Origin: Synechococcus sp. Nb3U1
GTDB lineage: Bacteria > Cyanobacteriota > Cyanobacteriia > Thermostichales > Thermostichaceae
Reading direction: 5' to 3'
Assembly (NCBI RefSeq): GCF_021533835.1
Contig: NZ_JAKFYQ010000004.1
Coordinates: 1 to 64,000, forward strand
Length of the DNA: 64,000 nt
Below the pieces are notes generated by a model that saw only the letters and a list, made by a program, of their open reading frames with translations, made no database searches and was not told the DNA's origin. Below are positions 28,119 through 30,148 of the stretch, one piece after another (the first letter of the stretch is position 1; the number at the start of each line of letters is the position of its first letter). The translations under genes and the position numbers were made by a program.

Positions 28119-29693
28119 TCAGAAGTTGAACACAGCCCGCAGAGCACCCACGCCAATAGTGGGGTCGTTGTCACCCGGCAGAGCGCCGTTGGGATTGCTT
28201 ACAAAGTAAGCAGCTGGGGTTAAGGTCAGGTAGTCGTTCACCGGGAAGCTGTAGTACACATCCACGATGAAGGGACGGCTATCCCAAACGCCATCGTTAC
28301 TGGTGGTTACGATCGGCTGGCCGAAAACCACGCCACCCTGAGCTCCTTCAATGAACAGATCCGGGAAGGCAAAGCCGAACAGGAATCCGTTGAAGTCTTC
28401 ATCACCAGGATCGATGGTGCCAGCGGGAACCACATTGGGCAGGTTGTAATCCACGTTGCCAGTGGTGAACCAGCCAGACAGAATCACACGAGGGCTAAGC
28501 TCCCAGTTGGCAGCCACAGAGAAAGCATTAACGCGAGCAGAGTGAGACACATTGGTCACGCTCAGAGGCCCACGGAAGAGGGTGGTGCCGTTGGCCAAGA
28601 AACCAGGGTCACCGTCCTGCACATAGGTGCTAGCAAACTGCAGGTACAGCTCCAAAGTGTCAGTCGGCAAGAACCCCAATTCAACCGCATGAGCACTATT
28701 GCCACCCGTCAGACCCGAGTCACCAAAGCCTTTACCCAGAGACTGACCGCCAGTAGTGCTGTAGCTATAGGCCAAGCGAAACTGATCGCCAGGGCGGAAA
28801 CGGAAGCCAAACATGGTTCCGCCGGGCACGTCAGCGGTGGAGTTGGGAGCATCGGCGAAGTCAGACAGGGCATCGAAAGGAGTGCCATAGTTGAAGACAT
28901 CGAACACACCCGAACCAGAGATGCCCGCATAAATGGTAGCAGCGTTATTGAAAGCCGGGAACTGATAGATCAACTTGGCTAGGGTGAATGTGCCACCACC
29001 ACCACCGCCGAAACCAGGGCCGGGATCGCCATCAAAGAACTCGGTCACGGCGTTACGAGCTTGCAAACGAATCCGCAAGCGATCCCGACCGGTGAAAGAA
29101 GCATCGAAGTTCAAGCGCACCCGGTAGGGTAGGGTCATGTTGGCTTGGTCTTGCTCAGCAACCGTTGTGCCATTCACAATGCGATCATCGGTAAGGGCAC
29201 TACCGTAAATGGCAGTGATCACCTGAGCATTCAACTTTGTGACGGGGTTGAAGACTTTCCCCTTCAAGTTGGTGACATCAGCTTCTAGGGCATCGACACG
29301 ACCGCGCAGGGCAGCCAATTCAGCGGCAAATTCCTCTTGCAGGCGCTGCAGGGTAGCCAAGTCTTCCCGAGACACTTTGTCAGCCAAGCCAGCAGCGATC
29401 AACTCGTTGATGCGATCCAAACAAGCATTCATACCAGCGGCAAACTCAAAGCGGGTCATGGCCCGGTTGCCACGGTAGGTGCGATCAGGGTAACCAGCAA
29501 TACAGCCATAGCGCTCCACCAAAGATTGCAGAGCTTGGAATGCCCAGTCGGTCGGCTGTACATCAGAAAGCTCAGAAATAGCGGTGACCGGCCCAGAAGC
29601 TTGGGCATAGGCCATTCCAGGAGTCAAGACTGCCGCTGCACCCAGGGTGCCAGCCAGCAGAGTCTTCCAGTAGTTCGCGTGTTTCGCGGGCAT
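28119..29693 (-). CDS. outer-membrane porin with SLH domain (cyanobacterial iron-uptake/SomA-type)
   Basis: 524 residues. A signal peptide (about 1-31, ending AYAQA) is followed by an S-layer-homology domain (about 38-100: LSDVQPTDWAFQALQSLVERYGCIAGYPD), which binds the cell wall. A coiled coil comes next (about 105-145: LATLQRLQEEFAAELAALRG), then a beta-barrel with the OprB-like end VDVYYSFPVNDYLTLTPAAYFVSNPN ... RAVFNF. It is the abundant outer-membrane channel type of cyanobacteria (Slr1841, SomA/B). AAGGAG sits 8 bases before the ATG, and an intrinsic terminator lies downstream. Its 5' leader carries a putative Yfr1 pairing site. Confidence 0.92.
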   Translation of the reverse strand: MPAKHANYWKTLLAGTLGAAAVLTPGMAYAQASGPVTAISELSDVQPTDWAFQALQSLVERYGCIAGYPDRTYRGNRAMTRFEFAAGMNACLDRINELIAAGLADKVSREDLATLQRLQEEFAAELAALRGRVDALEADVTNLKGKVFNPVTKLNAQVITAIYGSALTDDRIVNGTTVAEQDQANMTLPYRVRLNFDASFTGRDRLRIRLQARNAVTEFFDGDPGPGFGGGGGGTFTLAKLIYQFPAFNNAATIYAGISGSGVFDVFNYGTPFDALSDFADAPNSTADVPGGTMFGFRFRPGDQFRLAYSYSTTGGQSLGKGFGDSGLTGGNSAHAVELGFLPTDTLELYLQFASTYVQDGDPGFLANGTTLFRGPLSVTNVSHSARVNAFSVAANWELSPRVILSGWFTTGNVDYNLPNVVPAGTIDPGDEDFNGFLFGFAFPDLFIEGAQGGVVFGQPIVTTSNDGVWDSRPFIVDVYYSFPVNDYLTLTPAAYFVSNPNGALPGDNDPTIGVGALRAVFNF

Positions 29694-30148
29694 GTTTCTC
29701 TCCTTGTTCTTTTCCTCACACCTGTTTGGCTGTAGCGATGCCTTCTAAAAGTAACAAACTGCCTAACTCAAGAATGAGCCTGACAATTGCGGACTCTGGA
29801 AAAACATGATACAGCCATAATCCATATCGTCTACCACTTTACACAGTTTTTGCGCGAGACTCAATGCGAGACCCAGCGGCGGTAGATGATCCAGGCCCAA
29901 TATCCATTACTCTACCTCAGGGATCCAGCTCTGGCTAGCAGGTGTACCCCCTGTGAAGCTGCAAATGGCACCGATTGGCACTCCAGAGGTGGGATCTAGC
30001 AGGCTGTGGCTGCGGGATCCCTCAGTTAGGATCATCCTGGTGCCAGACCCAGTAACACCCCCGGTAACACTTCTTATCCCTCCGCTGGCAGAAGGGGCTG
30101 ATAAACTGCGGGAGTATACTTGGCCTTTTTCACAAGCTCTGAATCACT
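29694..30148. other. divergent intergenic region, porin leader and acsF leader
   Basis: 455 bp between the divergent porin and acsF genes, without a credible ORF. It holds the porin 5' untranslated region with the site at 29713-29721 and an AT-rich patch at about 29750-29850. The acsF-proximal half is more GC-rich, with two GGATCC motifs. No further element is recognised. Confidence 0.6.
29713..29721 (-). promoter_or_regulatory. putative Yfr1 small-RNA binding site in the porin mRNA leader
   Basis: The porin mRNA carries GUGUGAGGA 20 bases upstream of its AUG, just before the AAGGAG ribosome site. This is exactly complementary to 9 bases of the invariant single-stranded core of cyanobacterial Yfr1 (ACUCCUCACAC). 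Yfr1 is known to repress som-type porin mRNAs in Prochlorococcus by pairing at the leader. The yfr1 gene itself was not found in this window. Confidence 0.5.

What the first reader, a model, noticed from the sequence alone, without database searches (positions are those of the whole stretch)
29713..29721. Porin leader complementary to the Yfr1 core
Seen: mRNA GUGUGAGGA just upstream of the ribosome site pairs perfectly with 9 bases of the Yfr1 core. Known: Yfr1 blocks translation of two porin mRNAs in Prochlorococcus by this core. Inference: the control is conserved in this deep-branching cyanobacterium.
Basis: partly seen in the sequence, partly recalled or inferred. Interest (0 to 1): 0.55.

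Follow-up and report, generated by a model that had tools for sequence, protein, structure and literature searches.

The report
Small-RNA docking site on porin mRNA
The start of an outer-membrane porin message in this cyanobacterium carries a ten-letter docking site for the small regulatory RNA Yfr1, and the same site precedes many porin genes in other cyanobacteria, so Yfr1 control of porins looks ancient rather than special to ocean strains.

Summary
The porin leader (minus strand) has GGUGUGAGGA (29722-29713), ten bases complementary to the Yfr1 core, 19 nt upstream of the AUG and just before a separate Shine-Dalgarno. The genome carries yfr1 (56.4 bits, core intact) and one Yfr2/Cyano-1 gene, the presumed sponge. 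The gene is an SLH+OprB porin. Not chance: at least 8 nt of core complement precedes the start in 107 of 137 cyanobacterial porins against 3 of 316 neighbouring genes, in 44 of 46 genomes and in 51 of 80 named loci. Genome-wide, 7 of 18 GTGTGAGGA sites sit at starts of long genes. By predicted pairing energy this leader ranks first of 385 sampled. Yfr1 repression of porins is already published for Prochlorococcus and Nostoc, so this is a new member of a known kind. What appears new is the reach across the phylum and a Thermostichaceae geometry: the site stands away from the Shine-Dalgarno, with a possible second contact over the start codon. Repression here is inferred, not shown.

The parts
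29713..29722 (-). Yfr1 target site GGUGUGAGGA, 10 nt perfectly complementary to UCCUCACACC of the Yfr1 core
   Evidence: sequence, Yfr1 core, conservation
29699..29705 (-). separate Shine-Dalgarno AAGGAGA
   Evidence: sequence; same letters in the 6 species of the genus
29690..29698 (-). possible second contact GAAACAUGC over the start codon, complementary to GCAUGUUUC of the Yfr1 5' hairpin
   Evidence: cofold; no other of 385 sampled leaders matches this block beyond 7 nt
28119..29693 (-). SLH + OprB-type outer-membrane porin, 524 aa
   Evidence: Pfam OprB 4.5e-19 and SLH 2.3e-8
29806..29833 (-). weak promoter-like pair (TAGACG-16-TATCAT); a start there would give a leader of about 105 nt that includes the site
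   Evidence: 1 found, shuffles mean 0.3; not evidence of function

Best explanation
The element is a Yfr1 target site in the leader of the OprB-type porin mRNA. Yfr1, a 64-nt RNA with an exposed core between two hairpins, pairs through UCCUCACACC with GGUGUGAGGA at -29 to -20. The duplex lies within the region that an initiating 30S subunit covers (recalled) and close to the Shine-Dalgarno, so it should block ribosome loading and lower porin synthesis. The Yfr2 RNA of the same genome can pair with 12 nt of Yfr1 (UUCACUCCUCAC) and could relieve repression. Shown here: both RNA genes, the complementarity, its conservation and its preference for porins over neighbouring genes. Inferred: expression, duplex formation, repression and relief by Yfr2. 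In this family the pairing may extend to the start codon through the Yfr1 5' hairpin (inference, about 0.25).
For: yfr1 present with intact core; one OprB match by Pfam in the genome; Yfr2/Cyano-1 present and complementary to Yfr1 (sequence printed); at least 8 nt of core complement before the start in 107/137 porins vs 3/316 neighbour genes, 44/46 genomes, 51/80 named loci. In 90 porins with GAGGA before ATG the five preceding bases are G, G, T, G, T in 54, 70, 79, 79 and 84 of 90; of 11 control genes with GAGGA only the nearest base shows the same preference (T in 7 of 11). Conservation falls at both edges of the 10-nt block. This leader is first of 385 by predicted interaction energy (-22.1, next -17.1), or -16.7 with the 5' hairpin kept closed. 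With duplex energies alone, 1 of 300 shuffled Yfr1 sequences did as well. Published: Yfr1 represses alr4550 (OprB-like) and alr0834 (porin) of Nostoc in an E. coli reporter (PMC6974561, abstract and one results section read), and PMM1121 of Prochlorococcus (PMC6778093, passages seen).
Against: No expression data for this organism. The site is partly paired in the predicted leader fold (mean unpaired 0.33). Sites persist in five genomes in which the Yfr1 model finds nothing (G016, G119, G033, G187, G241): two of these have a core-bearing Yfr10-like element, one is by size probably SS120 (recalled), where Yfr10 is reported, and two are unexplained. 30 of 137 porins and 29 of 80 named loci lack an 8-nt match. 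On the 3' side two further bases (GU) could pair with the core but are not conserved.
Confidence: 0.85

Rival explanations
1. GGUGUGAGGA is merely an extended Shine-Dalgarno or a translation-enhancing element favoured by highly expressed porins, with Yfr1 irrelevant.
For: GAGGA is Shine-Dalgarno-like, and in 87 of 107 porins with a site it ends 3-12 nt from the start. Sites persist where no yfr1 was detected. In G020 the matches are TGTGAGGAGT and TGAGGAGT, closer to a plain Shine-Dalgarno.
Against: The non-SD half GGTGT is largely conserved too (54-84 of 90 per base). Some porins keep GGTGTGAG but lose GAGGA (e.g. L254, L273, L309, L325). In this genus a separate Shine-Dalgarno is present, yet the site is identical in 6 of 6 species.
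Confidence: 0.08
2. The physiological partner is another RNA with the same core (Yfr10 type), with Yfr1 a minor player.
For: Core-bearing RNAs other than Yfr1 exist: SS120 has Yfr10 (PMC6778093, passage seen), and G187 and G241 have a core between GGACA/TGTCC arms before a hairpin with a T-run.
Against: This genome has 7 ACTCCTCACA words: one is yfr1, two are the antisense of GTGTGAGGA sites (L016, L018), two were read in context (L241, L250) and by eye are not followed by a hairpin with a T-run, and two were not read. So an extra core RNA is not excluded.
Confidence: 0.05
3. Chance complementarity in this one leader.
For: A 9-base word is expected several times in such a genome (19 here, 11 for the reversed word).
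Against: Conservation in 44 of 46 genomes and preference for porins over neighbours.
Confidence: 0.01

Closest known systems
Yfr1-PMM1119/PMM1121 porin control, Prochlorococcus MED4
   Same: Same sRNA core and same kind of target (porin), site before the start; the small f3-family genome G009 (by recall Prochlorococcus-like) has two porins in one 3-kb locus with GTGTGAGGA 5-6 nt before ATG.
   Different: Judged from G009 (MED4 itself was not read), the site there is at the Shine-Dalgarno position; here it is 19 nt from the AUG with a separate Shine-Dalgarno.
Yfr1-alr4550 / alr0834 porin control and the Yfr1 cell-wall regulon, Nostoc PCC 7120
   Same: OprB-type porins; other targets are envelope and peptidoglycan genes, as candidates in this genus are (secretin-like, LysM, AsmA-like, GlmS).
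   Different: Different lineage and mostly different non-porin genes; tested by reporter there, only predicted here.
MicF/OmpF-type sRNA control of porins in enterobacteria (recalled)
   Same: Works alike: an sRNA blocks porin translation initiation by pairing at the leader.
   Different: Unrelated RNA and porin families; not the same family.

Membership tests
Yfr1 sRNA (RF01116) | Covariance-model match over the gathering score | tested here: met
   56.4 bits vs 38
Yfr1 sRNA (RF01116) | Two hairpins flanking an unpaired ACUCCUCACAC core | tested here: met
   alignment; fold
Yfr1 sRNA (RF01116) | Neighbourhood guaB/trxA (common, not universal) | tested here: not met
   between ligA and a Rieske-type gene next to clpX (gene names recalled from the translations); ligA-yfr1-clpX is published for two strains (PMC2190773), so not disqualifying
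Yfr1-regulated mRNA | Perfect pairing of the leader with the core in the translation initiation region | tested here: met
   10 nt at -29 to -20
Yfr1-regulated mRNA | Conservation of the site in orthologues | tested here: met
Yfr1-regulated mRNA | Core-dependent change of reporter expression with compensatory rescue | not testable with these tools
   needs experiment
SLH/OprB-type cyanobacterial porin | OprB barrel plus N-terminal SLH domain over Pfam cut-offs | tested here: met

The most novel reading that the evidence does not exclude
The SLH/OprB porin leader element GGUGUGAGGA is the ancestral, phylum-wide partner that has kept the ultraconserved Yfr1 core fixed. It is found from a genome of Gloeobacter size (G020, in the shifted form UGUGAGGAGU) through Thermostichus, filamentous forms and Prochlorococcus-like genomes, and survives loss of yfr1 where a Yfr10-like RNA takes over. 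In Thermostichaceae it became a two-contact duplex in which the Yfr1 5' hairpin opens and also covers the porin start codon.
Probability: 0.5. Interest if true: 0.65.

Novelty: new member of a known kind. Interest (0 to 1): 0.48.

Why it matters
Voss et al. [quoted passage not shown] A porin-leader element found across the phylum offers one concrete answer, testable in any tractable cyanobacterium: outer-membrane permeability would be the ancestral Yfr1 output. The altered geometry in Thermostichaceae is a natural test of whether pairing outside the Shine-Dalgarno still represses.

Tried and rejected
Shine-Dalgarno-only reading: not favoured, because the GGTGT half is largely conserved too and the genus has a separate Shine-Dalgarno. 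Loss of yfr1 as a natural knock-out test: G033, G187 and G241 have no Yfr1 match but keep 7-9 nt porin sites. This would count against Yfr1, but G187 and G241 carry the core in another RNA-like element and Yfr10 is reported for SS120 (which G033 matches by size, recalled), so the test is not clean. G016 (5 of 5 porins with sites) and G119 (3 of 4) also lack a Yfr1 match; unresolved. The reversed-motif control is not independent, since it shares TGAGGAGT with the motif (16 of 137 porins reach 8 nt with it, 11 of 80). For 200 shuffled motifs the mean was 2.3 porins of 137, but one shuffle reached 82 and was not inspected; the mean was 1.6 of 80, with two shuffles at 25 and 41, also not inspected. 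Rfam scan of the window at gathering scores gave only a tmRNA and tRNAs, so yfr1 is elsewhere. The protein search of the own genome counted 2 matches, of which only the porin itself is listed; Pfam OprB counted 1. Richter et al. 2010 (the original porin paper, recalled) is not held, so whether it already noted wider conservation is unknown. The searches 'Yfr1+porin+cyanobacteria' (13 papers), 'Yfr1+soms+Prochlorococcus' (0) and 'Yfr1' (40 of 52 listed) showed no title or abstract start that claims phylum-wide porin sites; I looked into five of these papers only, by passages or sections.

Full report
What is there. The minus strand of the window carries a 524-aa ORF (28119-29693) with SLH and OprB domains over the Pfam cut-offs. 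It is the only Pfam OprB match in the 3.49-Mb genome; a protein search counted one further, unlisted match. Its leader reads GGUGUGAGGA-AAAGAAC-AAGGAGA-GAAAC-AUG (29722 down to 29691). GGUGUGAGGA is the exact reverse complement of UCCUCACACC in Yfr1.

The partner RNA. The genome has one Yfr1 match, G000:C1:1613497-1613560(-), 56.4 bits against a gathering score of 38, with core ACUCCUCACACC. It folds into two hairpins with the core unpaired. It lies between ligA and a Rieske-type gene beside clpX (names recalled from the translations), like the ligA-yfr1-clpX order published for two strains (PMC2190773, passages seen). The genome also has one Cyano-1/Yfr2 match, G000:C1:1664084-1664148, 50.6 bits. 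At its 5' end stands GUGAGGAGUGAA, complementary to 12 nt of Yfr1 (sequence printed), so the Yfr1-sponge pair known in Prochlorococcus is present by sequence.

Conservation near home. In the genus, the stretch from GGTGTGAGGA to ATG is identical in 6 of 6 species, while sequence upstream of it varies. The two other genera of the family keep 8 nt in one porin each (a second G006 porin has 6), and the sister-family genome G008 keeps 8-9 nt in 5 of 5 porins.

Conservation across the phylum. I took 30 porin loci each and 80 more places from the listing; they were not chosen by motif, but the listing itself is capped. ORFs with an upstream stop were called uniformly. Of 453 unique ORFs, 137 were porins. 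At least 8 nt of core complement, followed within 35 nt by an in-frame start, occurs in 107 of 137 porins (9 nt in 85, 10 nt in 54), against 3 of 316 neighbouring genes (9 nt in 1, 10 nt in 0). By genome, 44 of 46 have at least one. The exceptions are G011 and G019 (best 7 nt); a second G011 porin, dropped because its ORF is cut by the contig end, has a 10-nt site. A partly overlapping set of 80 named loci gives 51 of 80 at 8 nt and 27 at 9 nt. Paralogues and related genomes are not independent, so these are counts, not probabilities. Anchoring on GAGGA before ATG (90 porins), the preceding bases are G, G, T, G, T in 54, 70, 79, 79 and 84 of 90; beyond the 10-nt block no base exceeds half, although GU on the 3' side could also pair. 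Of 11 control genes with GAGGA, only the nearest position shows the same preference (T in 7 of 11).

Yfr1 itself. Yfr1 was found in 137 of 291 genomes drawn from the phylum (132 over the cut-off). Of the 141 genomes listed as own or same genus or class, 137 have it; G119, G033, G187 and G241 do not. The listed genomes of other classes have none (134 further non-matching genomes are not listed). Of 16 further genomes from my porin set 15 have it (G016 does not), and the four negatives stayed negative. In G187 and G241 another element bears ACTCCTCACACA between short inverted arms, followed by a hairpin with a T-run; their porins keep 7-9 nt sites. Yfr10, with the same motif, is reported for SS120, which lacks Yfr1 (PMC6778093, passage seen).

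Wider regulon in the genus. Outside yfr1, GTGTGAGGA occurs 18 times in this genome, and 7 lie 0-20 nt before the start of a long ORF, against 42 of 915 other GAGGA words in a 464-kb sample; two of the seven starts are TTG. The seven are the porin, an AMIN/Secretin_N protein (PilQ-like by inference), a LysM protein, a YhdP/AsmA-like protein (below the Pfam cut-off), a DUF4397 protein, a protein with lipoprotein-like start and no Pfam match, and an FAD amine oxidase-like protein. Several recur with the site in other species of the genus by eye, and glmS carries it in G001, G003 and G004. That call examined 88 of the 157 sites listed for nine genomes; 57 of the 88 had a start within 30 nt, many of them chance starts. 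This resembles the envelope and peptidoglycan regulon of Nostoc Yfr1 (PMC6974561: abstract, one results section and part 1 of the discussion read).

Geometry and mechanism. The site ends 3-12 nt from the start in 87 of 107 porins with a site, where it overlaps the Shine-Dalgarno position. In Thermostichaceae (f1) it ends 18-20 nt away and a separate Shine-Dalgarno lies between. Predicted interaction energy ranks this leader first of 385 (-22.1 kcal/mol; next -17.1; the sample includes this leader itself). With the Yfr1 5' hairpin held closed it is -16.7. The difference comes mainly from GCAUGUUUC of that hairpin pairing with GAAACAUGC over the AUG; no other sampled leader matches that block beyond 7 nt. 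The block is kept in G007 and shortened in G006. Predicted energies are -14.9 to -25.4 in the six species of the genus, -9.9 in G006 and -19.3 in G007; the value for G008 there (-5.3) is unreliable, because the script picked a place other than the porin leader read. The hairpin itself is older (same letters in G020), so a second contact would have been gained on the mRNA side. This was noticed after the fact and is the weakest claim here.

Verdict. A real, conserved Yfr1 target site on the porin mRNA; repression of translation initiation is the best-supported action, already published for porins in two other lineages. New here are the lineage, the counts across the phylum and the variant geometry.

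Noticed in passing
L014, L017, L019, L013, L016, L012 (own genome), each around position 1501: The same 9-mer directly before starts of a secretin-like, a LysM, a YhdP/AsmA-like, a lipoprotein-like, a DUF4397 and an FAD oxidase-like protein: a candidate Yfr1 envelope regulon.
   Followed up: partly
L337 (G004), L333 (G001), L368 (G003): GTGTGAGGAATG overlaps the start of glmS in three species; a glmS-like leader of the window's own genome has GGTGAGGTGAG instead (L402).
   Followed up: partly
L376:1500-1565: Yfr2/Cyano-1 RNA of the own genome with a 12-nt perfect complement to Yfr1 at its 5' end.
   Followed up: yes
L235 and L245, centre: Yfr10-like element with the ultraconserved core between short inverted arms in two f3-family genomes without a Yfr1 match.
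   Followed up: partly
L008:1514-1621 and L127: Site 4 nt before a 36-aa ORF (MDLIPDEPMVIASLLGLALLGILILNLAGGGSSDAD) without Pfam match, seen in two species: possible small membrane protein.
   Followed up: no
L001:1734-1742: A second near-core (ACTCCTCAC) about 170 nt from yfr1 on the opposite strand.
   Followed up: no
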